Source of the DNA: Cupriavidus respiraculi | GTDB taxonomy: Bacteria > Pseudomonadota > Gammaproteobacteria > Burkholderiales > Burkholderiaceae | DNA: 64,000 bases | Assembly (NCBI RefSeq): GCF_914271545.1 | Contig: NZ_CAJZAH010000008.1 | Span: 114,696 to 178,695, forward strand | Direction: 5' to 3' | Part shown: positions 632 to 12,952 of the stretch, one piece after another | How positions within the stretch are numbered: position 1 is the stretch's first letter | How the letters are laid out: each line of letters opens with the position of its first letter | The notes under the pieces: model-generated | The model's input: the letters and a program-made list of their open reading frames with translations, nothing else | What the model was told of the DNA's origin: nothing | The model's database searches: none | Made by a program: the position numbers and the translations under genes

Positions 632-677
632 ATTTGTAATCATCAGGTGGCGGGTTCGAGTCCTGCAGCCGGCACCA
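632..677 (+). other. Attachment site: displaced 3' half of tRNA-Thr(UGU)
   Basis: The sequence runs from the anticodon loop (TTTGTAA, anticodon TGT) through the 3' anticodon strand, variable loop, an intact T-arm (GCGGG TTCGAGT CCTGC), the 3' acceptor strand AGCCGGC and ACCA. No D-arm or 5' acceptor strand precedes it; the bases before 632 do not pair with TCATC. This is the footprint of tyrosine-integrase insertion at an anticodon-loop site: the intact tRNA gene should lie to the left, outside the window, with the element between. The fragment is therefore a right-hand att site, not a functional tRNA. Confidence 0.8.
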
Positions 678-748: not shown

Positions 749-816
749 GCAACGTAGCCAAGCCATGTCGCATCGCACAAAGTCACCAAGCGCAGAAGTG
801 GGTGATTTCCCAAGTT

Positions 817-833
817 GTAACTTATCGTAACTT
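817..833. promoter_or_regulatory. Two direct GTAACTT repeats upstream of the defence operon
   Basis: GTAACTT occurs at 817-823 and 827-833, spaced ten bases start to start (one helical turn), with an AAGTT half-site just before the first. The same heptamer is present at 609-615 next to the attachment site. The repeats lie about 140 bases before the sigma-factor start, so they could be an operator for the operon or integrase/recombination accessory sites. No clear -35/-10 pair could be assigned in 749-972. Confidence 0.3.
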
Positions 834-972
834 GTGATGGAATCGAAAGATCGCTCTTCTGTCGGCCCTTGAGCAGCAACGGTCAGGGGCGGAATAGCGC
901 CGGTAGGGGACAGTGTTCTGTCGAATAGCGGTAACCCGTCCGCCGGGACGTCATAGATTATGTAGAAGACAG

Positions 973-3486
973 ATGAGCACTTGGGAGCCGGCAAAGCTGC
1001 ATCCAATGCTGAAGCTTGCGCTGAAAAGCGGCGTGACAGCCGCCGTGGCGTTCCAGCTTCGCAGGTCCGATTGCGCTAACGCGCGTGACGCAAATGGTGA
1101 CACGCCGCTAATGATCGCCGCAGCCAACGGCCATCTGGATGTCTGCAAGCTGCTTGTCGAAAACGGTGCGGATCCGTTAGCCACCGACCAGATGGGCGCG
1201 ACCGCCTACTCCAAAGCGCTAGCTTCCAAGAAATTGGACGTGGTCGAGTTACTCGCATCCATCGTGCAACAGTCGACGCCCGTGCCGGCACCCATGATCG
1301 TTCGCGGGGCGGAAAACCTATCCTGCGTTTCCGATTTCCCAAAAATTCCCTCGGCCGGGTATGTCGATATCCGTCCCAGTCTCGCTACGGAAGCCATCGC
1401 TCAGAGCATTGACGAGGGGGCAACGCAAGTTGGTTCGGCCACTTCCAACTTGATTGCTGATGAAGGGGAATTGTTCGGATGGGCCCCCGAGGAAATCTCT
1501 GCGATCCCTTCAAACGACGCTGTTTGTCGAGCGGTAGCGGAAGAGGAGCAGAAAGCGATCAGCCGGCATAAGCCGCAAGATAGCGATGCGGATTGGACGG
1601 ACGTGTCCTTTGACTTGCCCGAAGGGCAGGGTGTCTTCGTCCCCCAATCGGGCGATCTGTCACTCATCGCTGACCTCATCCATGAAGGTTTGGCCGTCGG
1701 GAGGTTGTCTTCTTCTTCAATCGCTGCTGCGTGCGATTCGCAATTTGGAGATGCAGGGAAAGATGTTGTTCCCCTGCTTATCGCCATCCTGCTTGATCTG
1801 CCCATCATCATTGACGCGGAAGACCTTTCGCCGAGACACGGAACTCCTGAGCCAAATGCTTTTGATGCAGACCTCGCCGCGGCCGCGCTTGCACGCCTGC
1901 AGGAGAGACTCAATAGCACCGCGGACCGCGTCGGTGCGTTGTACTTCCGTGATATCGGTGCGGTCGATCTGCTAACGCGCCAAGAGGAAGTTGCGACAGC
2001 TAAACGCATCGAAGCGGGGCTCAGGGACACAGTCCTTGCCTTATGTGATTGTCCATCGATCATTGCAGATTTACTAGCCGCAGCCGAACGCGTCGCCAAT
2101 GACGAAGCTCGCATCGATGAGCTCATTGATGGCCTGATCGATCTGGATGTCGGCGATGAGATATCTATTAGCGATGAGAATTACTTTCCGTCGGGCGTAA
2201 CGCGCGCAATTGACGACGAACGTGTCGATGAAGACGACGACTCCGCCGATGACTCTTCGTCGCAAGAACTCGTGGTGCTCAAGCAGAACGCGTTGGAAAT
2301 ATTTCGTGCAATCGCGCCGCACTTCGAAGCAATGGAACAGGCGCTGGAGAACGATGGATATGGATCCGCTCCATACGACCGCGCGCGCGACGCCATTCGC
2401 ACGGAGTTGGGCAAGATTCGCATTGCGAATCGCGCCGTGGCGCAACTGTGCGACACGTTGCATGGATGTGTCGTCCGGTGCAGCGAGCTGGAAAGCGAGA
2501 TCCGTCGCATTGCAGTGGATAAATGCGGCATCCCAGCCGCCGTCTTCGAGATGCATTTTGTCGGGAACGAGATCGGTCTCGACTGGTTTTCGAAGGCCAG
2601 TGCTGCGGGCGTACCGGACCAGCAACTGCTCAAGCGCCAAGCCCCTGCTTTGCTGGAACTACGGCAACAACTTGTTGCTTTGCAGTCCAAGGTGAGACTG
2701 CCACTAAGGGAGCTCAAGAACGTTCACGCCAGGGTGCAGGCGAGCGAATCGCGCACGCTACGAGCAAAGCATGAGATGACAAACGCCAACTTGCGGCTTG
2801 TCGTCTCGATTGCAAAGAAGTATTCGACCTCCGGCCTCGATTTCCTTGATGTTGTTCAGGAGGGGAATATTGGTTTGATGAAAGCCGTGGACAAGTTCGA
2901 GTATCGACGCGGCTTCAAGTTCTCTACTTACGCCACCTGGTGGATCCGGCAAGCAATCACGCGCGCAATTTCGGATCAGGCTCGGACGATTCGCGTTCCA
3001 GTGCACATGATGGAGTCGATCAACCGCTTGAATCGCATCTCCCGACAGATCGAGCAGCGTACGGGTTCCTTGCCCAATGTGACGACTCTTGCCAGAGAGC
3101 TGGATGCTTCCGAGGATAAGGTCCAGCAGTACCTCCGGATTGCTGGGGGGGAGCCTACGTCTCTGGACATTAGTTCGGATGGCGCAATTGAGGAGAGCAT
3201 TGGCGATGGCTTGATGGACCCTTCTCCCACTCCCGAACAATCCCTGTTCAAAGCCCAGATGGCTCAAGCGATCGACTACGCCCTCTCCAACCTGCCGCCG
3301 CGATCGGCGAAAGTCTTGAAGCTGCGATTCGGACTCGAGACGAAGACCGATTTCACCTTGGAGGAGGTTGGGAGATTGTTCGATGTCACGCGCGAGCGCA
3401 TTCGGCAGATAGAGAGCAAGGCGCTACGCACATTGAAGCATCCCAATCGGTCCACCGCCTTAGCCGCTTTTCTGGACGCAGATTGA
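973..3486 (+). CDS. Ankyrin-repeat, RpoD-type sigma-70 factor
   Basis: Encodes 837 aa. Residues about 41-96 form two to three ankyrin repeats ([21 protein letters not shown] followed by a second helical pair). A sigma 1.1-like segment lies near 230-300, region 1.2 starts near 318 ([17 protein letters not shown]), an acidic non-conserved insert lies near 410-430, regions 2-3 start near 600 ([33 protein letters not shown]) and region 4 spans about 768-826 with the helix [10 protein letters not shown]. The DNA-contacting parts match housekeeping RpoD closely, so it should recognise ordinary -10/-35 promoters. ATG at 973 is preferred over 913 because ankyrin homology begins soon after it. It is first in the operon, 40 nt before the ATPase gene. 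It is not the chromosomal rpoD: it is longer, carries ankyrin repeats and sits in an island. Sigma identity is certain; its job with the defence genes is inferred. Confidence 0.9.
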
Positions 3487-3526
3487 GTGCGGCGTCTTGA
3501 TAGATAGAAAGAGCCAACACTAAAAG

Positions 3527-5032
3527 ATGGAAACATCGACGAAGTCTGCCCCGCCTCCGTTCTCCCGCCATGCTCCACCGAAGGCGGCGGCCATGATTGA
3601 AGCGCTCCGCGGGTTAGGTTACAGCACGGCAACTGCTTTGGCGGATATCGTCGATAACAGCATTGCCGCCGATGCGACTCACGTCGCAATCCGGTTCGAA
3701 TGGGCCGGCGGCGAAAGTCGGGTTTCCATTCAGGACGACGGTAGCGGTATGAATGCCGAGGCGATCGACAAGGCCATGCGCCTAGGAGAGCGCAATCCGC
3801 TTGAGGAGCGTGCGGCGGCTGATCTCGGCCGATTCGGGCTTGGCCTGAAAACCGCATCGTTCTCCCAATGCCGACGGCTGACCGTCGCATCTTGTGGACA
3901 GGATGGTTTTCACTGTCTGCGGTGGGATCTCGATGTGTTGGCAAAATCCACTGGCGACGGATGGTACTTGCTTGAGGGGCCATCACCAGGATCGGAGCCT
4001 TGGTTAGAGCCTGTCAAAGAAGCACGGCACGGCACACTCGTGCTATGGGAAAGTCTCGATCGAATCGTGACGGACGGCTTCAAAGAACAGGACTTCCTCG
4101 AACTCATCGATCGCGTAGAGCTGCACCTGTCGATGGTTTTCCATCGCTACCTCGAAGGCACGCGTCCATCTCTGAAAATCACTATCAACGGCAAGCGACT
4201 GGTGCCTTGGGACCCGTTCCTCGCTGGCCATCCTGCCAAAGCATGGGAATCGCCCCTTTCGCGCTCACCACACGGGAACGGCGTCGAGGCGAAGTGCCAT
4301 GTGCTGCCGCACAAGGACAGGCTGAGTCCCAAGGAATATGAAGATGCGCAGGGACCCGATGGCTGGACGTCGCAGCAGGGCTTCTACGTCTATCGGAATC
4401 GGCGCCTGTTGGTGGCCGGGAGCTGGCTCGGACTTGGCCAGGGGCGCTCATGGACGAAGGATGAAGCGCATCGACTTGCCCGTATCCGGCTGGACATTCC
4501 GAACTCTGCTGATGCAGATTGGAAGATCGATATCCGCAAGTCAACGGCTCGCCCACCCGTGGCGCTGCGGGCTTGGTTGATCCAACTCGCCGAGAACACA
4601 CGCTCGCGTGCGCGTCGGGCCTTCGTGCATCGGGGTATGGGGCCTCGTACCGCAGACAACAAGCCTGTGGAACAAGCCTGGCGCGCTGAACACTTCGCCG
4701 GCGGAATGCGATATCGGATCGATCTCGACCACGCGGCTGTGCGCGGAGTCCTCGACGAAGCAGGAGGCTTGCTGCCCCAAGTGAAAGCGATGCTGAGGGT
4801 CATCGAGGAGACCATCCCCGTTCAGCGTATCTGGCTAGATACGGCCGAGAACCGGGAAAGTCCGCGGACCGGGTTTGGCGGCTCGCCTCCAGAAGAAGTT
4901 GCAGACGTTTTGCGAGTGCTATTCCGCACCATGGTTCAGCACAAGGGGATGTCTGTCGAGATGGCGCGCGAGCGGCTCCTGCATACAGATCCCTTCTGTA
5001 ACTACCCGCAACTGATATCGACCCTGTCGTAG
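3527..5032 (+). CDS. GHKL (MutL/MORC-like) ATPase of a defence module
   Basis: Encodes 501 aa. The Bergerat-fold ATP site is plain: N-box ALADIVDNSIA (residues 37-47, Asn44), G1 box DDGSGM (70-75) and G2 box GRFGLGLKTAS (101-111). Asp40 occupies the usual catalytic Glu position, which I believe is common in this subfamily. The middle resembles the S5/transducer half of HATPase_c_3 proteins; the C-terminal part is unassigned. In MutL and MORC proteins ATP binding closes a dimer clamp around DNA, and a similar clamp is the likely role here, possibly with the neighbouring Z1 protein and nuclease. It is 40 nt after the sigma gene and 21 nt before the Z1 gene. Family assignment is strong, mechanism is inferred. 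Confidence 0.9.
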   Translation: METSTKSAPPPFSRHAPPKAAAMIEALRGLGYSTATALADIVDNSIAADATHVAIRFEWAGGESRVSIQDDGSGMNAEAIDKAMRLGERNPLEERAAADLGRFGLGLKTASFSQCRRLTVASCGQDGFHCLRWDLDVLAKSTGDGWYLLEGPSPGSEPWLEPVKEARHGTLVLWESLDRIVTDGFKEQDFLELIDRVELHLSMVFHRYLEGTRPSLKITINGKRLVPWDPFLAGHPAKAWESPLSRSPHGNGVEAKCHVLPHKDRLSPKEYEDAQGPDGWTSQQGFYVYRNRRLLVAGSWLGLGQGRSWTKDEAHRLARIRLDIPNSADADWKIDIRKSTARPPVALRAWLIQLAENTRSRARRAFVHRGMGPRTADNKPVEQAWRAEHFAGGMRYRIDLDHAAVRGVLDEAGGLLPQVKAMLRVIEETIPVQRIWLDTAENRESPRTGFGGSPPEEVADVLRVLFRTMVQHKGMSVEMARERLLHTDPFCNYPQLISTLS

Positions 5033-5053
5033 CGACGGGTTGGAAGGCATCCA

Positions 5054-7879
5054 ATGCTCAACGAAGCGAACAGCCTGAATGTACTGAAAGTCGTCCAGAT
5101 GCTCTTGCAGGAAGAGCAGGACAAGTCCTGCATCACGCCGGCAGTGATCGAGCAGAAGATTTCGCTCGCCTTGATGCTCAACCGCGGCTGGGTGGAGGGT
5201 CTGGATCGCGAATGGGTCGTGGAAGAGCTGATTCGCCGGTTCAGTGTCTGGATTGGCAAGGATACGTCGCTCGTCGATAACGTTGGTCACAAGCCATGGC
5301 TGACTCCCGAGCGGAAGAATAACTGGCGCTATTGGCAACGCTATCGTGAATGGCAGGAGGCGAAGCTGCCTTGGTCGGCCATTGACGGCCTTGATGCTTC
5401 GACCGACGATGTACTGGGTTCGCTCGAGGATCCTCTTCGTCCCGGAAGCTGGGACCGTCGTGGCTTGGTAGTCGGGCACGTGCAGTCGGGGAAGACCGGA
5501 AACTACACGGGTCTGATCAGCAAGGCTGCGGATGCAGGCTACAAGATCATCGTGGTCCTCGCCGGCATGCATAACAACCTGCGGTCGCAAACGCAGATGC
5601 GACTCGACGAAGGCTTCCTTGGTTATGCCACCAGCGCCTTCCAGGATGGAGCACTTAACGTCATCGGAGTGGGGGTGATTGACGGCGACCCTGCAATTCG
5701 GCCGAACTACGCGACCAATCGATCGGATAACGGGGATTTCAGCGCAAAGGTTGCCAAGAATTTGGGCATCACACCCGAGCAGCGCCCCTGGCTCTTCGTC
5801 ATCAAGAAGAACAAGTCGGTCTTGCAGCGACTGCTGCATTGGATCACCAGTCATGTTGCGAATGCATCGGATCCAGATACGGGGCGCCGCATCGTTACGA
5901 ACCTTCCCCTGCTCGTCATCGACGATGAGGCGGATCACGCGTCTGTGGATACGGGCGAGCAGCTGATTGGCGAGGATGGCGTCCCTGATCCCGAGCATCA
6001 GCCTACAGCAATCAACAGCCTGATACGCAGGATCCTGCATGCCTTCACAAGAAAGGCGTACGTGGGCTACACGGCCACTCCTTTTGCCAACATCTTCATT
6101 CACGAGCGTGGTGCTACGCATGACGAGGGCCGGGACCTGTTTCCGTCGAGCTTCATTGTGAATCTCGGAGCCCCGTCCAACTACATTGGTCCGACGAAGG
6201 TATTCGGGCTTGCAGGGCCAGATGGGCGGGAGGGCGGCTTGCCGCTGGTGCGAGTGGTTTCCGATCACTGCTCCGAGGATGGCAAGTCAGGTTGGATGCC
6301 GGTTTCTCACAAGGCAACCTATCGTCCGCATGACCCCTCAACCGAGTCGGGCTTGCCCGAGTCTCTCGCCGAGGCGATCGATGCGTTCATCCTCACCTGT
6401 GCGATTCGCCAACTGAGAGGTCAAGGAGGGGAGCACTCCTCCATGCTCGTACACGTGACGAGATTCAATGCCGTGCAACAGGTGGTCCATCAATGCATCG
6501 ACAGCTATGTGCGCCACATGCGCCAGCGCGTGTTGCGACAGATTGGGAGTGAACCCATCCTGGCGCGGTTGAAAGACCTCTGGCGGAACGACTTCGTGCC
6601 GACCACAGAGGCAATGGCTGCATCGTCTCTGTCAGCCACCGGTACGAGCGAGACCTGGGAACACATCGTAGAAGCTCTGCCCGTTGTCCTGGAAGCTATC
6701 AGTGTTCGGATGATCAATGGCACGGCCAAGGATGCGCTCGATTACGCAGATAGTGCGACCGGGCTGAAAGTGATTGCCGTGGGCGGGGACAAGCTTGCGC
6801 GCGGGCTTACTCTCGAAGGCCTTTGCACCAGCTATTTCCTCCGGGCGTCTCGCATGTATGACACGCTGATGCAGATGGGGCGCTGGTTCGGGTACCGCCC
6901 TGGCTACCTGGATGTGTGCCGGCTCTATACGACTAGTGAGCTGGTGGAGTGGTTCGAACACATCGCAGATGCTGCGGAGGAGTTGAGGGAAGAGTTCGAC
7001 GAGATGGTGGCTAGCGGTGGAAAGCCGATTGATTTCGGCCTAAAGGTCAAGTCCCATCCGGTGCTCATGGTGACCTCTCGCTTGAAAATGCGCTCGGCCA
7101 AATCGCTTTACCTATCGTTTAGCGGGAGCGTCGTGGAAACCGTGACTCTCTTCCGAGATCCCGTAAAGCATAAAAGCAATCTGGACGCGTTCCGTCGTCT
7201 ATCCGCGACGCTAGGCCCGTCGCGAGGGAAGCCCTCTCAGAAGCGAAATGGCACGACGGAGTCTTGGGCTGCGGCCATGTGGAAAGACGTGTCCTGGGAG
7301 GCTGTGGTCGCCTTCCTGCAGGACTACGAGACTCATCCTGAAGCCCTTAAAGTAAACTCGCGAGTGATTGCAGAGTTCGTCGCCGCGATGGCAAGAGCGG
7401 GTGAGTTGACGTCTTGGACGGTTGCAGTGATCGGAGGTAGTGTGAACGAGCGAGTGGAGGAGGTTGGAGGACAACCTGTCCCGCGAATGGTGCGTACGGC
7501 GAAACCAAAGCACGACGATCGCTATTCAATCGGCCGCCTGCTGTCACCGAGGGACGAAGGTCTCGATATCGAAGAGACCGCTTGGCTTTCGGCTTTGAAT
7601 GCTACTCGCAAAAAGTGGCACAAGGATCCCGGAAGAAACTCCAGCACCGAAGCACCGACTGTGCCAAGCGGCATATCGCTGCGAGCTGCGCGTCGTCCTG
7701 AAACGGCACTATTGCTACTTTATCTGCTAGACCCGGAAGAATCGAAGGTCGATTCATTGAAGGGCAAGGGGCCGGTGATTGCGTTCGGCATCAGCTTCCC
7801 TGGCAGCGAATCTGGCACCAAGGTGGAATACAAGGTGAACAATGTCCTCTGGGAGCAGCAGTATGGCGCTTCAGAGTAA
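5054..7879 (+). CDS. Z1-domain superfamily II helicase-like ATPase
   Basis: Encodes 941 aa. Walker A is GHVQSGKT (residues 141-148), the Walker B/DEAD-type motif is LLVIDDEADHA (286-296), motif III-like GYTATPF is at 338-344, the Z1 signature GGDKLARG is at 577-584, and an arginine-finger motif QMGRWFGYRPGY lies near 606. These are the hallmarks of the Z1 (PF10593-type) proteins found next to predicted restriction genes. The protein probably translocates on or remodels DNA during recognition of foreign DNA. Its 3' end overlaps the next gene by 17 bases, which suggests translational coupling. The C-terminal 250 residues carry no motif I recognise. Confidence 0.92.
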   Translation: MLNEANSLNVLKVVQMLLQEEQDKSCITPAVIEQKISLALMLNRGWVEGLDREWVVEELIRRFSVWIGKDTSLVDNVGHKPWLTPERKNNWRYWQRYREWQEAKLPWSAIDGLDASTDDVLGSLEDPLRPGSWDRRGLVVGHVQSGKTGNYTGLISKAADAGYKIIVVLAGMHNNLRSQTQMRLDEGFLGYATSAFQDGALNVIGVGVIDGDPAIRPNYATNRSDNGDFSAKVAKNLGITPEQRPWLFVIKKNKSVLQRLLHWITSHVANASDPDTGRRIVTNLPLLVIDDEADHASVDTGEQLIGEDGVPDPEHQPTAINSLIRRILHAFTRKAYVGYTATPFANIFIHERGATHDEGRDLFPSSFIVNLGAPSNYIGPTKVFGLAGPDGREGGLPLVRVVSDHCSEDGKSGWMPVSHKATYRPHDPSTESGLPESLAEAIDAFILTCAIRQLRGQGGEHSSMLVHVTRFNAVQQVVHQCIDSYVRHMRQRVLRQIGSEPILARLKDLWRNDFVPTTEAMAASSLSATGTSETWEHIVEALPVVLEAISVRMINGTAKDALDYADSATGLKVIAVGGDKLARGLTLEGLCTSYFLRASRMYDTLMQMGRWFGYRPGYLDVCRLYTTSELVEWFEHIADAAEELREEFDEMVASGGKPIDFGLKVKSHPVLMVTSRLKMRSAKSLYLSFSGSVVETVTLFRDPVKHKSNLDAFRRLSATLGPSRGKPSQKRNGTTESWAAAMWKDVSWEAVVAFLQDYETHPEALKVNSRVIAEFVAAMARAGELTSWTVAVIGGSVNERVEEVGGQPVPRMVRTAKPKHDDRYSIGRLLSPRDEGLDIEETAWLSALNATRKKWHKDPGRNSSTEAPTVPSGISLRAARRPETALLLLYLLDPEESKVDSLKGKGPVIAFGISFPGSESGTKVEYKVNNVLWEQQYGASE

Positions 7880-8870
7880 GTCTGAGATTGCTCTTGCCTG
7901 GCGCGCGTTGTCCGATACGGGGCAGCAATCCGGCTGGCGGTGCATCCCCATTTCGACGGCCGGCACCGTCGGCGCCCTTGCGGGCCGACACTTTCCAGAT
8001 AACGCGGAGGCGATCCTCGTTGGATTTCGTACGCTGAGCCAAGCAAACAGTGCAGCGTTTCCCAAGGGCAATGGGTTTCGTGTGGAGCGCGCAGAGCTAG
8101 AAGCTGATGGAAAGACCTGGGTCGCGTTGATTCGCGAAGCGTCGGCCTCGCTCGATATGTTCACGTTGATGGCGGAGGACGTATCGTCCGTGCTCGCCTC
8201 TCGCGGAGCGGCTCACGATGGTGCTCTCTTTCAAGCTTTCTTGGGCCGCATTCGCGCGTGGCAATCGTTCATGAAGAACGGTGATCTGGCGCTAGGTCCG
8301 GAAGCGGAACTTGGGTTGGCAGGTGAACTCACTTGCCTCAATCAACTGTTGGCGAACGGTGTTCCAGCGCAAATTGCTTTGAACGCTTGGGTGGGTCCCT
8401 TGGACGGGCTTCAAGACTTCGAACTTGGCTCGGGTGCAATCGAGGTGAAGAGCACGCTAGCAATCGCCGGTTTCCCGGCGAAGATCCTCTCGCTTGAGCA
8501 ACTCGACGACTCTGTTCGGCAACCGCTTTACGTGTGCGCATGTCGATTCCGGCCATGCGAAGAAGGTATGACATTGCCGATGCTGGTGAAGACGCTTGAA
8601 GACGCACTGGCCGAGGCCGGTGCATCTGTGGCGGATCTCCGTGTCGCGCTGCTTCATGCAGGATACCTTGATTCGCAGGCCGACCGATATGTACGCAAGC
8701 TCGCCAACGTATCGTGCGATTTCCGACTGGTGACCGACGGGTTTCCTCGGCTCACGCCTGGTACGGTGCCCCCAGGCGTACGCGCCGCTCGTTACGACAT
8801 TGACCTGGACCAAGTGGTAGGGGACACGACTCCGATCACCCAGATGCTTTCAATCCTTATGGGGCGGTGA
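7863..8870 (+). CDS. PD-(D/E)XK nuclease-fold protein (DUF4420 type)
   Basis: Encodes 335 aa. A helix with GLAGEL (Glu155) precedes the core, and the active-site pattern is Asp181/Asp185, then GAIEVKST with Glu194 and Lys196, followed by a QLDDS helix. This fits the PF14390 proteins that accompany Z1 and AIPR genes and predicts a metal-dependent DNA endonuclease. ATG 7863 is preferred over 7842 because GGGAGCAG stands just before it; the start lies inside the end of the Z1 gene. The stop is followed after one base by the AIPR start, so the products are probably made together. Family assignment is good; nuclease activity is inferred from the intact residues. Confidence 0.85.
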   Translation: MALQSKSEIALAWRALSDTGQQSGWRCIPISTAGTVGALAGRHFPDNAEAILVGFRTLSQANSAAFPKGNGFRVERAELEADGKTWVALIREASASLDMFTLMAEDVSSVLASRGAAHDGALFQAFLGRIRAWQSFMKNGDLALGPEAELGLAGELTCLNQLLANGVPAQIALNAWVGPLDGLQDFELGSGAIEVKSTLAIAGFPAKILSLEQLDDSVRQPLYVCACRFRPCEEGMTLPMLVKTLEDALAEAGASVADLRVALLHAGYLDSQADRYVRKLANVSCDFRLVTDGFPRLTPGTVPPGVRAARYDIDLDQVVGDTTPITQMLSILMGR

Positions 8871-8871
8871 G

Positions 8872-10656
8872 ATGGAACTGCTGGAATTCCTTCATCAGAC
8901 ACAAGAACAAATTCGCGCAGAGATTGCCGACAGGACCGGTCCGGGGATCGACATGCCTTTTGGCGAGCTGGTCTTCACGGAAGTGGTGGCGAAACACATG
9001 GCGGATTCAGGTATGACGTGCGGAGACCCGGTGGCATGCCATTACACAGCGAAGGTCGGTAACTCCCCAGTCCGTTTGAGCGGGTATGCGGTTTCTGATG
9101 ATGGCGATCAGCTCGATCTTTTCGTCAACCTTTATCAGGGCGCTACTGAGCTCGCGACCATCTCGGATCCGGAAGTCGCGAAGGCAGCGGAGCATTGCTC
9201 GCGCTTCCTCTCCGCATGCGTGGAAGGAAAGCTCGGAACGAAGATGGACGAGTCCAATGACGCATATCCGATGGTCCTCACCATCGAGAAAGTCTATAGC
9301 GATCTCGATCAGATAAGAATCTATGTGCTAACCGACGCGCAAGTGAAAACTCGCGTGTTCCGTCCACGAGAAATTGCCGGAAAGACCGTCAAGCTCGAAG
9401 TGATGGATATCGTTCGCCTCTACAACCATTGGCAAGAAGGCAAGCCTCGCGACGAGCTTGTTGTGAACTTCGAGGAAGTGTGTGGTCAAGCGCTGCCTTG
9501 CGTCTGGGTGCCAGGGGAGAACGGGGAGTACGACTACGCAATGACCGTGGTCCCTGGCGAGGCCCTGCGTTTTATCTACGAGAAATTTGGCACGCGGGTA
9601 CTGGAAGCCAACGTGCGATCTTTTCTGAGCCCGAGCAAGGAAGTCAACAAAGGAATCAGTAACACCCTGCGAGAATCCCCCGGACGTTTCATGGCTTTCA
9701 ACAACGGAATCGTCATCGTTGCCGACGAAGCCCGTATCGGCCGTGTTGAAGGCGGTGCAGGTATATCGTGGCTGAAGGGCATGCAGATCGTGAATGGTGG
9801 ACAGACGACGGCCTCCATGTTCTTCACGAAAAAGAAGTATCCATCGACCGATCTCGGGCCGGTTCGTGTCCCCGCGAAAATCATTGTCTTGGGTGAACTT
9901 GACCAGTCGCGTGAGGAAGAACTGATCGCCGATATATCCAAGTACGCAAATTCACAGAACAAAGTGAACGCGTCGGATCTTTCGGCCAACAAGCCCTTCC
10001 ACGTCGCAATCGAGAAGCTCGCATTGACGACATATTGCCCCGATGGATACGGACGCTGGTTCTACGAGCGCGCCGCGGGCAGTTACAAGGTCATGCTTGA
10101 GCGAGAGGGGAAAACAGCGGCAGGCATCAAGCGCCTGCAGGAATCAATGCCACCTGCGCGCAAGATCACGAAAACCGATCTTGCAAAGTATGTTTGTGCA
10201 TGGAAGCGCCGTCCAGATCTTGTAAGCTTGGGGGGACAAAAGAACTTCAAGGCATTCATGGAAGAGATGGTGGACGCTCCCGGCGACGGAGAAGAGTCAA
10301 TTCCGGATGCGGCCGAGTACAAGAAGATGATCGCCTGTGCCATTGTCTTCAAGGCTGCGGAGAAGGCGATACGGGTGAGCAAGGAGTTTCCGGCCTTCCA
10401 AGCGAACATCACAGCGTATACCGTTGCTATGCTGTCTGTGCTGAGAGGCGAAGCGATTGACCTTGGCATCATCTGGCAAAAGCAAGATATCAGCCACGAT
10501 CTGTCACGCGAGATCTTGGCGTTGGCGACGGAAGTGAGTGCGTGTCTGCATCAGACTTCCGGCGGCCGAATGATCTCCGAGTGGGCTAAAAGGGCAGAGT
10601 GCTGGCATAGCGTTTCAACTGCCACGTTTGGTACACGTTTGACTTCCACTTACTAG
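8872..10656 (+). CDS. AIPR-family (abortive phage resistance) protein
   Basis: Encodes 594 aa. The central block FMAFNNGIVIVAD followed by KGMQIVNGGQTTAS (NGGQTT at residues 308-313), then ISKYANSQNKVNASDL, is diagnostic of the AIPR domain (PF10592). The N-terminal segment around 70-90 (GYAVSDDGDQLDLFV) resembles the acidic core of a nuclease-like fold but was not assigned. It ends the + strand operon, one base after the PD-(D/E)XK gene. AIPR proteins are linked to abortive infection and restriction-like systems; the biochemical activity is not settled. The short C-terminal tail after about 570 looks unstructured. Confidence 0.88.
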   Translation: MELLEFLHQTQEQIRAEIADRTGPGIDMPFGELVFTEVVAKHMADSGMTCGDPVACHYTAKVGNSPVRLSGYAVSDDGDQLDLFVNLYQGATELATISDPEVAKAAEHCSRFLSACVEGKLGTKMDESNDAYPMVLTIEKVYSDLDQIRIYVLTDAQVKTRVFRPREIAGKTVKLEVMDIVRLYNHWQEGKPRDELVVNFEEVCGQALPCVWVPGENGEYDYAMTVVPGEALRFIYEKFGTRVLEANVRSFLSPSKEVNKGISNTLRESPGRFMAFNNGIVIVADEARIGRVEGGAGISWLKGMQIVNGGQTTASMFFTKKKYPSTDLGPVRVPAKIIVLGELDQSREEELIADISKYANSQNKVNASDLSANKPFHVAIEKLALTTYCPDGYGRWFYERAAGSYKVMLEREGKTAAGIKRLQESMPPARKITKTDLAKYVCAWKRRPDLVSLGGQKNFKAFMEEMVDAPGDGEESIPDAAEYKKMIACAIVFKAAEKAIRVSKEFPAFQANITAYTVAMLSVLRGEAIDLGIIWQKQDISHDLSREILALATEVSACLHQTSGGRMISEWAKRAECWHSVSTATFGTRLTSTY

Positions 10657-10768: not shown

Positions 10769-12361
10769 CTATTCGCCAACTCGAGCGAGTAATGTCAGTT
10801 CCGAGTCGAGCTCCATTGCAGCTATCACCTTCGCAATTTTGTACGCCAGCAGTGGAGGGACGGCATTGCCAACTTGGTGGAACTGTTCGGTGCGGTTCCC
10901 CTGAAAAAAATAGTTGTCGGGGAACGTCTGTAATCGTGCGGCCTCCCGTACCGTAAGACTTCGGCACTGGCTGGGATCAGGATGGATGAAGTAGTGCCCA
11001 TCCTTCGCGATATGACTGGTGATCGTGGTGGACGGACGGTCGTACGCTTGCACCCTGAACCGGTCGGCAAACTTGCCAGACTCCCAGTTGCGATGCTCGG
11101 GGCGAAGTCCGCTCAGTAACGAGAAGTCTTCGTGCCCCTTGGGCGAACGTTCGAAGGCTTTAGCGAACGCAGCCGAAAAGGCATATCGCCTGAGGTCGCT
11201 GCTCATATGGCCCCTCGTTTCTGAATTTAGCCAGACGCGAAGGTTGTCGTCGTGGTACCACTTCTGCAACGGTGTGCAGGGTGTGAAATCGAACTTCGTT
11301 CGCGGCAGTCGAACGTCTCCGGTGCCAAGATCGTCCGAGAGGCCGCTAATCGCTTCCTTCAACTCCACCCGCAGCCGTTTTAGATCAGCACGGCCCTTGG
11401 TTTCGTTCAACAGCTCGGTGAGATGTTGTTTCACGATTTGATCCCAAGGGGCCACCTGCTCGGAACGCCGACTCAAGTCGCTTCGTAGTCTTGGCAATCC
11501 ATACAAGGCCTCTTCGAGATGCGCTTCTTCAGCACGCTGAAGCTGTGCCGGAGTTGCTTCTATGTCTTTGCGAACTCCCAGCAGGATTACGCGATGGCGT
11601 GCCTGCGGTACACCGTAGTCCTCGGCTCGAACGACGAATTCGCGAGCATCAATGTCATCCGGAGACATGTCGCCATGGAAAGCCGTTTGCGACGCCAGCG
11701 AGTGAATCGCATATTCGTGCTTTGCTTGCTTCCCCAGTGCGGAGTCGGGGGAGGCGAGATCGGCGAGGATATCGTGGAAGATTCTCTGTTCGCCTACTCG
11801 CGAAGTCAGAATACCCTTGACGTTCTCCATAACGAAGACGGCAGGCTTGTATTTCTGAATGATTTGGAGATATTCGCGATAGAGAAAATGCCGGTAATCT
11901 TCCTCGGGCTTGTAGCTGGCTTTACCGCGATTACGCGAACGGCCGACCAGCGAATATGCCTGGCAGGGTGGCCCCCCAATGAGAACCCAAGGCTTGTCCG
12001 GACCTAGGCCGGCGTCCCGGATGGCACGCTCCAGCTCAGCATTGCCTTCCGGCGTCCCAAGTGTGATCCGGCGCGCTTCCTGTTCCGCTTCCTCCCATGC
12101 AGCCAGCGTCGCCATGTCCCATGGCGTGTCGCTTCGCCCATTGCAGAACTGGTAGTATGATTTCAGGGCGGCGGGACCTTCCCGCTTGAGCAGGCGGTAG
12201 AATGCGCGCAATCGGAGCGTCTCGTGCGCAGGCTCGCTCATCTCCGCAGAAACGATGATGCGAAATGCCCTGCCATCATCGAGAGCCGAGAAACCTTCGC
12301 CTAGGCCCCCAGGGCCCGCAAACAAGTCGACGACGGGTATTGGTGGTGTTGACCTACGCAT
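10769..12361 (-). CDS. dcm: DNA (cytosine-5) methyltransferase
   Basis: Encodes 530 aa. Motif I is VVDLFAGPGGLGEGF (residues 10-24), motif IV GGPPCQAYS has catalytic Cys133, motif VI is VMENVKG (178-183), motif VIII is QARHR (253-257), and motifs IX-X are REAARLQTFPDNY and QVGNAVPP near the C-terminus. All catalytic parts are present, so it should methylate C5 of cytosine, presumably protecting host DNA from the adjacent nuclease or marking self. It converges on the AIPR gene and diverges from vsr across 138 bases. The target sequence cannot be read from the protein. Confidence 0.95.
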   Translation of the reverse strand: MRRSTPPIPVVDLFAGPGGLGEGFSALDDGRAFRIIVSAEMSEPAHETLRLRAFYRLLKREGPAALKSYYQFCNGRSDTPWDMATLAAWEEAEQEARRITLGTPEGNAELERAIRDAGLGPDKPWVLIGGPPCQAYSLVGRSRNRGKASYKPEEDYRHFLYREYLQIIQKYKPAVFVMENVKGILTSRVGEQRIFHDILADLASPDSALGKQAKHEYAIHSLASQTAFHGDMSPDDIDAREFVVRAEDYGVPQARHRVILLGVRKDIEATPAQLQRAEEAHLEEALYGLPRLRSDLSRRSEQVAPWDQIVKQHLTELLNETKGRADLKRLRVELKEAISGLSDDLGTGDVRLPRTKFDFTPCTPLQKWYHDDNLRVWLNSETRGHMSSDLRRYAFSAAFAKAFERSPKGHEDFSLLSGLRPEHRNWESGKFADRFRVQAYDRPSTTITSHIAKDGHYFIHPDPSQCRSLTVREAARLQTFPDNYFFQGNRTEQFHQVGNAVPPLLAYKIAKVIAAMELDSELTLLARVGE

Positions 12362-12499
12362 CTGTTACCACGGAAAGAGCTTGGAAGAGCGGCACCTTAC
12401 CAGGAACGGAGCTTGCAGTCGAGTATGGGCGATCAGGAGTTCCCCCGCTTGGCCATATTGCAGCAGGTCCGAGCGACTTCACTATTGCAGTCATCGCTC
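12362..12499. promoter_or_regulatory. Divergent dcm/vsr intergenic region with ATTGCAG repeats
   Basis: This region must hold promoters for both the methyltransferase (leftward) and vsr (rightward). ATTGCAG occurs at 12457-12463 and 12484-12490, 27 bases apart in the same orientation, with a related TTGCAG near 12412. They could be an operator. No convincing -35/-10 pairs were identified. Confidence 0.35.
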
Positions 12500-12952
12500 A
12501 TGGTGGATGTAGTTTCGGCCGAAACGCGGTCCCGCATGATGTCCGGTATCCGAGGCAAGAACACTCGCCCGGAGATGCGCTTACGGAGCTTTCTTCATAA
12601 GGCAGGCTTTCGATATCGGCTGCACGATCGCTCTCTTCCGGGCAGTCCAGATCTGGTACTGCCAAGGTACCGCACTGTCATATTGGTTCACGGCTGCTTT
12701 TGGCATCGGCATTTAAATTGCCGGCTTGCAACAACACCCGGCACCAATGTTGAGTTTTGGCAGCGCAAGTTCTCCTCCAACGTCGAACGAGATTCCCTTG
12801 CGGTCCAAAAGCTACTCTCGGAAGAGTGGCGCGTAATCGTAGTCTGGGAGTGTGGCCTTAAATCAGCGGCCGCTGAGCAGTCGCTCGATTGGCTTCCGGG
12901 CTATATCAGGGATAGCTTCGAGCCGTATTTGGAATGGCCGGCCACGACGTAA
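12500..12952 (+). CDS. vsr: Very short patch repair (Vsr) mismatch endonuclease
   Basis: Encodes 150 aa. It starts MVDVVSAETRSRMMSGIRGKNT, as Vsr proteins do, then has GSPDLVLP with Asp51, VHGCFWH with His64 and His69, EFWQRKF and SNVERD. The numbering coincides with E. coli Vsr catalytic residues; position 63 is Val where E. coli has Thr, which should matter little if only its backbone binds metal. It nicks at T:G mismatches created when 5-methylcytosine deaminates at the partner methylase site. ATG 12500 is chosen over 12413 because family homology begins there. Its presence beside the methyltransferase fits a cytosine-5 mark. Confidence 0.94.
   Translation: MVDVVSAETRSRMMSGIRGKNTRPEMRLRSFLHKAGFRYRLHDRSLPGSPDLVLPRYRTVILVHGCFWHRHLNCRLATTPGTNVEFWQRKFSSNVERDSLAVQKLLSEEWRVIVVWECGLKSAAAEQSLDWLPGYIRDSFEPYLEWPATT

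What the first reader, a model, noticed from the sequence alone, without database searches (positions are those of the whole stretch)
973..10656. Five-gene defence operon led by an ankyrin-repeat sigma-70 factor
The ATPase, Z1, PD-(D/E)XK and AIPR proteins form a known type of predicted restriction-like module (as described in comparative genomics of MutL/MORC ATPases). Here a full-length primary-type sigma factor fused to ankyrin repeats is transcribed first, 40 nt ahead, with all later gaps under 25 nt or overlapping. A sigma factor inside a defence operon could switch transcription to the module on infection, or guard host RNA polymerase, with the ankyrin repeats sensing a phage protein. 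I know of no described system with this composition.
Basis: partly seen in the sequence, partly recalled or inferred. Interest (0 to 1): 0.8.

Follow-up and report, generated by a model that had tools for sequence, protein, structure and literature searches.

The report
MZA anti-phage operon with host-derived sigma
This is a member of a known bacterial anti-phage system (MZA), and comparison with related copies suggests that its leading protein has repeatedly swapped in a piece of the host's own main transcription factor, which hints that the defence works through the host's RNA polymerase.

Summary

What I did not find in print (searches listed) is that MzaA is a chimera with two histories. 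In the window copy the N-half (ankyrin, tryptophan-marked linker, degenerate region 1.1) follows the operon. In five of seven copies with an RpoD-type insert, this one included, the sigma half groups with RpoD; two could not be placed. In the four with a known host, the insert is most like that host's own RpoD. One origin of these sigma halves is rejected with regions 1.2-4, but not for all 36 MzaA with regions 2-4 alone. Regions 2-4 are under purifying selection in 4 of 5 pairs tested.

Best reading: a host-matched working sigma that times the restriction genes. A guard/decoy stays open. Role untested.

The parts
649..677 (+). 29-bp exact copy of the 3' end of the tRNA-Thr(TGT) gene at G000:C8:102042-102070; putative attachment-site repeat bounding a ~13 kb island (integrase, type I R-M, DarT-like gene) just upstream of the operon
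973..3486 (+). mzaA: ankyrin repeats + linker + full RpoD-type sigma factor
   Evidence: NCBIfam NF041931 841.6 bits (cut-off 800); Pfam
1015..1257 (+). ankyrin repeats of MzaA (residues 15-95)
   Evidence: Pfam Ank_2 3.8e-12; Ank_2 in 29 of 32 MzaA
1459..1620 (+). MzaA-specific linker with invariant Trp and Leu-Pro positions in the 25-row alignment A3
   Evidence: marks intact MzaA beside mzaB and mzaC in 8 of 8 genomes
1648..1833 (+). degenerate sigma region 1.1 (inferred)
   Evidence: this part of the A3 profile (positions about 59-124) weakly picks up RpoD-sized ORFs in other genomes
1939..3441 (+). sigma half, regions 1.2 to 4, with NCR most like the RpoD of the same genome
3527..5032 (+). 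mzaB, GHKL (MORC/MutL-like) ATPase
   Evidence: NF041932 859 bits (cut-off 850)
5054..7879 (+). [not shown]
   Evidence: NF041933 1419.7 bits (cut-off 1500), PADLOC MzaC 1408 bits; motifs
7842..8870 (+). mzaD, PD-(D/E)XK DUF4420 putative nuclease (likely start 7863)
   Evidence: Pfam; NF041934 397 bits (cut-off 420)
8872..10656 (+). mzaE, AIPR family protein
   Evidence: Pfam; NF041935 998.6 bits (cut-off 1050)
10769..12361 (-). Dcm-type C5 cytosine methyltransferase, probable partner of the module
   Evidence: partner in 30 of 32 sigma-bearing loci
12413..12952 (+). Vsr mismatch endonuclease, probable partner; the only Vsr match in the genome
   Evidence: 27 of 32 loci

Best explanation
Shown: the operon belongs to the MZA anti-phage system, with Dcm and Vsr as usual neighbours. 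Strongly supported: MzaA is a chimera whose N-half is inherited with mzaBCDE, and whose sigma half was replaced several times by a copy of the host's own rpoD; regions 2-4 remain under purifying selection in most pairs tested. Inferred: MzaA is a working, host-matched sigma factor, held back or tuned by its ankyrin/linker half, that drives transcription of its own operon. The methyltransferase is then made independently, and the restriction genes late or only under attack (controller-protein logic of restriction-modification systems). The effector step, also inferred: MzaB and MzaC remodel and translocate DNA that lacks the host 5mC mark, MzaD cuts it, MzaE (AIPR) completes interference or kills the cell, and Vsr repairs T:G mismatches caused by 5mC.
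For: Identity. Sigma gained once and nearly always kept: in the MzaC tree a 100* clade of 30 rows holds all 29 sigma-bearing rows; exception L113 below. Chimera: L025, L035 and L039 sigma halves are sister to their own host's RpoD at 100/99, 99/99 and 99/94; viral-contig L118 joins a beta RpoD at 100/94. One clade for the NCR-bearing MzaA sigma halves is rejected: p-AU 2.5e-93 (6 rows), 6.6e-6 (5 rows), 2.3e-4 (7 rows). The NCR is most identical to the own-host RpoD, rank 1 of 25, in 4 of 4 with a known host, the window included; an NCR + 1.2 tree agrees, the window with its own RpoD at 81. For the window copy the N-half, MzaC and MzaB+E trees agree instead on L033/L036 (94, 91, 99*; the N-half group also holds L022/L043). 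Function of the sigma half: region 2 is 80-90% identical to the paired RpoD; the promoter-helix motif RERIRQ is in 29 of 32, L064 and L056 having RERVRQ and L051 REGIRQ; dN/dS of regions 2-4 is 0.08-0.14 in 4 of 5 close pairs. Own-operon control: TGTAGAATT (a TAGAAT -10-like core) lies 107-165 nt before mzaA in 6 of 31 loci, with 16 copies in 5.7 Mnt overall and about 0.035 expected; no exact copy lies before dcm or vsr. The methyltransferase directly leads the operon in 5 of 28 sigma loci with room, against 31 of 73 without sigma.
Against: No expression data. The window shows no TGTAGAATT and no consensus sigma-70 promoter (0 found, 5.4 expected in shuffles); the element was seen in one subclade only, has no conserved -35 (my reading), and one 1-mismatch copy lies 12 nt before vsr in L039. 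L113, inside the sigma clade, has no MzaA match in the ~0.58 kb readable before mzaB, so the sigma may be dispensable there. With regions 2-4 alone, one origin of all 36 MzaA sigma domains is not rejected (p-AU 0.167), and the region 2-4 tree puts W and L025 together weakly (72) rather than with their hosts. By region 2-4 identity the own host is top in only 1 of 26 and ranks 21 of 29 for the window. L044 does not join its host's RpoD, and L042 could not be placed. The alpha subclade (L045-47, 50, 51, 53) has a degenerate region 2, L051 lacks most of it, and the L050/L051 pair has dN/dS 1.34, which does not fit an obligatory working sigma. Long branches throughout.
Confidence: 0.5

Rival explanations
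1. MzaA is a guard or decoy: a copy of the host's main sigma factor that sits on RNA polymerase or is bound by phage anti-sigma proteins; displacement or capture of it is read by the ankyrin/linker half, which releases the MzaB-E effector.
For: In the copies that carry it, the NCR is re-derived from the own host's rpoD, although 25 of 32 MzaA do not match the NCR model and so do not seem to need it. A decoy has to track its model. The sigma is present in 29 of 30 rows of the clade.
Against: Only 7 of 32 MzaA match the NCR model; 21 of 27 MzaA have a best RpoD identity of only 37-53% in regions 2-4, poor mimics. Promoter-contact residues are also conserved, which a pure decoy would not need.
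Confidence: 0.25
2. MzaA is a structural part of the nuclease complex: its sigma half tethers MzaB-E, through the ankyrin repeats, to RNA polymerase at strong sigma-70 promoters of incoming phage DNA, so that restriction is aimed at transcribed foreign DNA.
For: Ankyrin repeats usually bind protein partners (general knowledge); close co-occurrence with mzaBCDE; region 2 and 4 contacts conserved in most.
Against: No direct evidence; related modules without sigma presumably work (84 of 116 loci lack it; L023 and L054 branch just outside the sigma clade).
Confidence: 0.18
3. The own-rpoD signal is passive: homologous recombination between rpoD and mzaA overwrites the sigma half by chance, with no adaptive meaning. 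(Not exclusive of the three roles above.)
For: Long stretches of similarity between the two genes allow recombination; captured copies then drift (terminal branches about 5 to 15 times longer than the RpoD partner).
Against: Regions 2-4 stay under purifying selection (4 of 5 pairs), and region 2 stays at 80-90% identity.
Confidence: 0.3

Closest known systems
MZA (mzaABCDE) anti-phage system (Gao et al. 2020, recalled, not held; named in PMC9523054 and in PADLOC/NCBIfam)
   Different: MzaC, D and E fall 5-6% under NCBI's naming cut-offs; Dcm and Vsr neighbours are not part of the five-gene name; host-derived sigma half with NCR
[not shown]
   Different: Most lack the sigma (84 of 116 loci here); there the methyltransferase is often the leading gene (31 of 73 with room)
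paraMORC HEF_HK / Response_reg_2 elements (PMC8011034, passages read)
   Same: A regulator-like protein linked to a MORC-type ATPase, C5 methylase and Vsr
   Different: Response-regulator-like rather than a sigma factor
Housekeeping RpoD of the same genome (G000:C3:561696-563594)
   Same: Regions 1.2, NCR, 2, 3, 4; closest NCR match of the window MzaA
   Different: MzaA has N-terminal ankyrins and linker; region 3 only 34% identical

Membership tests
[not shown]
MZA system | best PADLOC model for each protein is MzaA, B, C, D, E | tested here: met
   (308, 694, 1408, 188, 862 bits)
MZA system | MzaC lies in the sigma-bearing clade | tested here: met
   100* clade
MZA system | protects against phages | not testable with these tools
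   mzaABCDE called 'validated' in PMC9523054; this copy untested
NCBIfam equivalogs MzaA and MzaB (naming cut-off) | score above curated cut-off | tested here: met
   841.6 vs 800; 859 vs 850
NCBIfam equivalogs MzaC, MzaD, MzaE (naming cut-off) | score above curated cut-off | tested here: not met
   1419.7 vs 1500; 397.1 vs 420; 998.6 vs 1050. I therefore do not give the three proteins those equivalog names in NCBI's sense; the system-level filing rests on gene order, PADLOC and the tree.
Restriction-modification-like (5mC) system | C5 methyltransferase gene beside the module | tested here: met
   window 10769-12361; 30 of 32 sigma loci; PF00145 in only 38 of 100 whole genomes of the order
Restriction-modification-like (5mC) system | methylation protects DNA from MzaB-E | not testable with these tools
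   needs experiment
Primary sigma factor (RpoD group) | regions 1.2, 2, 3, 4 with promoter- and core-contact motifs | tested here: met
   (window copy)
Primary sigma factor (RpoD group) | directs transcription with core RNA polymerase | not testable with these tools
   needs experiment

The most novel reading that the evidence does not exclude
MzaA is a self-updating mimic of the host's main sigma factor: lineages of the MZA system overwrite its sigma half with the current host's own rpoD because the defence must present, or sit on RNA polymerase as, an accurate copy of the cell's sigma-70. Phage seizure of sigma or RNA polymerase is then sensed through the ankyrin half and unleashes a 5mC-guided restriction module.
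Probability: 0.22. Interest if true: 0.85.

Novelty: new member of a known kind. Interest (0 to 1): 0.5.

Why it matters
The role of the sigma factor in MZA is not explained in any paper that my searches listed or that I read (open-licence PMC only). Evidence that its sigma half has been replaced, several times, by the host's own rpoD makes that question testable: either the system needs a sigma tuned to its host to control itself, or it uses the cell's main sigma as bait or sensor. It would be a case of a mobile immune system rebuilding one of its parts from an essential host gene. The Dcm/Vsr link also suggests that five-gene MZA annotations leave out the modification half.

Tried and rejected
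Rejected: 'no described system of this composition'. Rejected: ankyrin-sigma as an oddity of this genome (29 of 32 MzaA have Ank_2; the call does not name the three without; in the alignment L034 is cut by its contig and L045 and L053 have no alignable repeat, my reading). Rejected: ankyrin-sigma mostly elsewhere (8 of 8 intact linker hits beside mzaB and mzaC; of two further linker-bearing hits, G400 is a remnant with a stop and no MZA gene in the 19 kb read, and G443 has a truncated MzaA before mzaBC). The remaining hits are weak, cover only the region-1.1 part and lie in RpoD-sized ORFs; I read them as housekeeping RpoD by size and did not check each.

Corrected on recheck: my first ORF pass missed mzaB of L113; tblastn shows mzaB at 653-2071 and no MzaA match in the ~0.58 kb before it, and that stretch begins with what reads like an IS3-type transposase frame (my reading). 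So the sigma is present in 29 of 30 rows of the clade, not in all. tblastn of five MzaA against the 84 loci without sigma found only a sigma region-4-like stretch in L054.

Led nowhere: viral-contig search with MzaA (0 relatives); plasmid search with MzaA, whose 40 listed records of 182 align from region 1.2 on or later, so RpoD-like rather than MzaA; consensus promoter scan; strict match of region 2-4 identity to the own-host RpoD (top in 1 of 26, ranks from 1 to 29 of 29). The claim rests on regions 1.2-4 and the NCR of NCR-bearing copies.

Rows dropped: near-copies L021, L045, L051 and 70 of 84 non-sigma loci left out of the MzaC tree; L042 and L044 left out, L042 out; RpoD rows L230, L231 and L233 left out, and L234 also out; L051 left out; 8 MzaA left out of the N-half tree; 12 of 30 RpoD rows left out and 14 out. 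Only 5 of 29 plasmid MzaC hits were fetched. The viral record matched through MzaA itself.
Full report

IDENTITY. PADLOC's best models are MzaA-E. NCBIfam MzaA (841.6, cut-off 800) and MzaB (859, cut-off 850) pass; MzaC, D and E score 1419.7/1500, 397.1/420 and 998.6/1050, just under the naming cut-offs. The first ~96 positions of the MzaA model match ankyrin proteins elsewhere in the genome, so the ankyrin half belongs to the known family; Ank_2 is found in 29 of 32 MzaA. [quoted passage not shown] The original description (Gao et al. 2020) is recalled and was not held.

NEIGHBOURHOOD. A Dcm-type C5 methyltransferase (10769-12361, minus) and a Vsr (12413-12952, plus) follow directly. I classified 116 loci bearing MzaC: the window, 5 plasmid and 6 genome loci, 80 genome contigs (the best 80 of 430 relatives found, from a capped pattern list) and 24 viral contigs. 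Of these 32 carry the sigma before mzaB; 30 of the 32 also hold a Dcm-type gene and 27 a Vsr. Among 84 without sigma, 72 hold Dcm and 48 Vsr (absence of the sigma checked by tblastn); contig edges lower all counts. For comparison, a whole-genome search of 100 genomes of the order finds PF00145 in 38 and Vsr in 23, and the Vsr beside the operon is the only match in this genome. The association of MORC-type ATPases with methylases and Vsr is known (PMC2292703 and PMC8011034, passages read). It is not part of the five-gene MZA name. Upstream, an exact 29-bp copy of the tRNA-Thr(TGT) 3' end at window 649-677 bounds a ~13 kb stretch with an integrase beside the tRNA, a type I R-M system and a DarT-like gene. 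The MZA operon lies just outside that repeat.

THE SIGMA WAS GAINED ONCE AND NEARLY ALWAYS KEPT. In the MzaC tree (43 rows, quick method) a 100* clade of 30 rows contains all 29 sigma-bearing rows. The thirtieth, viral-contig L113, has mzaB but no MzaA match in the ~0.58 kb before it, so it may have lost the sigma. A MzaA-specific linker profile (A3) was searched in 399, 369 and 398 genomes of the order, class and phylum (overlapping draws). All 8 intact hits (own, G650, G360, G541, G535, G199, G898, G924) lie beside mzaB and mzaC. Two others are a remnant without MZA genes (G400) and a truncated MzaA before mzaBC (G443, L178). Weak hits limited to positions of about 54-128 of the profile fall in RpoD-sized ORFs, which I read as evidence that the second half of the linker is a degenerate region 1.1.

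MzaA IS A CHIMERA. Seven of 32 MzaA match the sigma non-essential region (NCR) model; from the alignment I take these to be W, L025, L035, L039, L042, L044 and L118. I fetched the RpoD of the host genomes of most MzaA carriers (27 of 29 genomes or records gave a match, the viral one through MzaA itself). In a tree of regions 1.2-4 (35 rows), L025 is sister to its own host's RpoD (100/99), L039 to its own (99/94), L035 to its own (99/99), viral-contig L118 to a beta RpoD (100/94), and the window copy falls inside the 18-row beta RpoD clade that holds its own RpoD (100/100), unresolved within it (the bootstrap had not fully settled). L044 stands alone on a very long branch there, and L042 was unplaceable. 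Holding the MzaA rows together is rejected: p-AU 2.5e-93 (6 rows), 6.6e-6 (5 rows, other RpoDs), 2.3e-4 (7 rows). By NCR alone the own-host RpoD ranks 1 of 25 in all 4 copies with a known host: window 108 identical residues (next 100), L025 104 (68), L039 119 (96), L035 130 (102); L118 has 170 (125) with L225. A tree of 1.2 + NCR gives the same five pairings, the window's at 81. In contrast the N-half places the window copy with L033/L036/L022/L043 (94), MzaC with L033/L036 (91), and MzaB+E with L033/L036 (99*). For the window copy, then, N-half and operon share one history and the sigma half another. The N-half tree is weak overall (2 of 21 branches starred) and differs from the MzaB+E tree for L022/L043. 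RpoD branches are short and MzaA branches long, so I infer the direction rpoD to mzaA.

LIMITS OF THAT CLAIM. With regions 2-4 only, one clade for all 36 MzaA is not rejected (p-AU 0.167). A region 2-4 tree supports L039 with its host (84) and L118 in the L225 group (99*), but leaves L035 unresolved and joins W with L025 weakly (72). By region 2-4 identity the own host is top in 1 of 26 (L025), second for L035 and L044, eighth for L039 and 21st of 29 for the window. Of 32 MzaA, 25 do not match the NCR model, and their sigma origin cannot be resolved. Branches are long.

FUNCTION OF THE SIGMA HALF. Region 2 is 80-90%, region 4 63-74%, NCR 46-70%, region 1.2 43-79% and region 3 34-62% identical to the paired RpoD in five pairs. 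In six pairs of host RpoDs those regions are 93-100%, 80-95%, 25-57%, 85-96% and 68-86%. So regions 3 and 1.2 have loosened most and region 2 least. RERIRQ is kept in 29 of 32, the other three differing by one residue, but the -10-facing WWIRQAITR block varies, and region 2 is degenerate in the alpha subclade L045-L047, L050, L051, L053. dN/dS of regions 2-4 is 0.14, 0.14, 0.13 and 0.08 in four close pairs and 1.34 in L050/L051; the N-part gives 0.19-0.51. One alpha member (L047) carries a C-terminal GcrA domain (Pfam 1.8e-17); GcrA is a sigma-70 partner that reads DNA methylation (general knowledge).

OPERON CONTROL. TGTAGAATT lies 107-165 nt before mzaA (start codons as I chose them) in L049, L052, L064, L111, L056 and L040: 6 of 31 loci examined, 16 copies in 5,709,300 nt of both strands of all DNA fetched by then, about 0.035 expected in the 31 upstream windows. 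These six share related upstream DNA in part, so they are not six independent events. No exact copy lies before dcm or vsr in the sigma loci; one 1-mismatch copy lies 12 nt before vsr in L039. It is absent from the window's upstream region. A Dcm gene directly leads the operon (same strand, within 900 nt) in 31 of 73 sigma-less loci with room, but in 5 of 28 sigma loci: the sigma tends to take the leading place and the methyltransferase to be transcribed apart.

MECHANISM. I favour a host-matched working sigma that times the restriction genes (0.5), over a guard/decoy of sigma-70 (0.25) and a tether of the nuclease to RNA polymerase (0.18). Passive recombination (0.3) could explain the captures under any of these. 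Steps supported by the calls: gene content, co-occurrence, chimera, purifying selection in most pairs. Steps inferred: sigma activity, ankyrin gating, 5mC self-recognition, DNA cleavage. The L113 correction was not large enough to move these odds.

NOVELTY. The locus is a new member of a known kind. The repeated replacement of MzaA's sigma half by the host's rpoD I did not find in print with the searches (PMC open-licence papers only; Gao et al. and most subscription papers not held). A 2026 BREX paper seen in passages mentions a sigma-like HTH in BrxL (PMC12839542).

Noticed in passing
L047:6040-8475 (Paracoccus sanguinis MzaA): MzaA fused at its C-terminus to a GcrA DNA-binding domain (Pfam 1.8e-17), a sigma-70 partner known for reading DNA methylation; hints at methylation-aware control.
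   Followed up: partly
C-termini of MzaA in L038, L040, L042, L049, L055, L056, L064, L111: A shared C-terminal extension ending in GKGYW-like residues, without a Pfam match in the one member (L049) scanned singly.
   Followed up: no
window 649-677 and G000:C8:102042-102070: Exact 29-bp tRNA-Thr 3'-end repeat bounding a ~13 kb island with integrase, type I R-M and a DarT-like gene; MZA lies just outside it.
   Followed up: partly
window 811-834: Repeat-rich stretch CAAGTTGTAACTTATCGTAACTTG (inverted CAAGTT/AACTTG, direct GTAACTT) ~138 nt before mzaA; possible operator.
   Followed up: no
L020:12640-13809: Thalassospira MZA is followed by an endonuclease with AspBHI-N and Mrr domains, probably modification-dependent, and then a Dcm.
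   Followed up: no
L033:15535-18333 and L036:14472-17123: A second, larger AIPR-like ORF directly after mzaE in the two loci whose MzaC is sister to the window's.
   Followed up: no
L045, L046, L047, L050, L051, L053: Alpha-type MzaA subclade with degenerate sigma region 2 but well conserved region 4 (one member, L046, in a Pseudomonas genome, suggesting recent transfer).
   Followed up: partly
L054:15938-19330 (minus): In a close relative without MzaA, an 1130-aa ORF just after mzaE holds a stretch similar to sigma region 4 (40% over 69 aa, E 1e-7).
   Followed up: no
L113:1-652 (viral contig): mzaB is preceded by ~0.58 kb without MzaA that begins with an IS3-like transposase frame; the sigma may have been lost or displaced.
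   Followed up: partly
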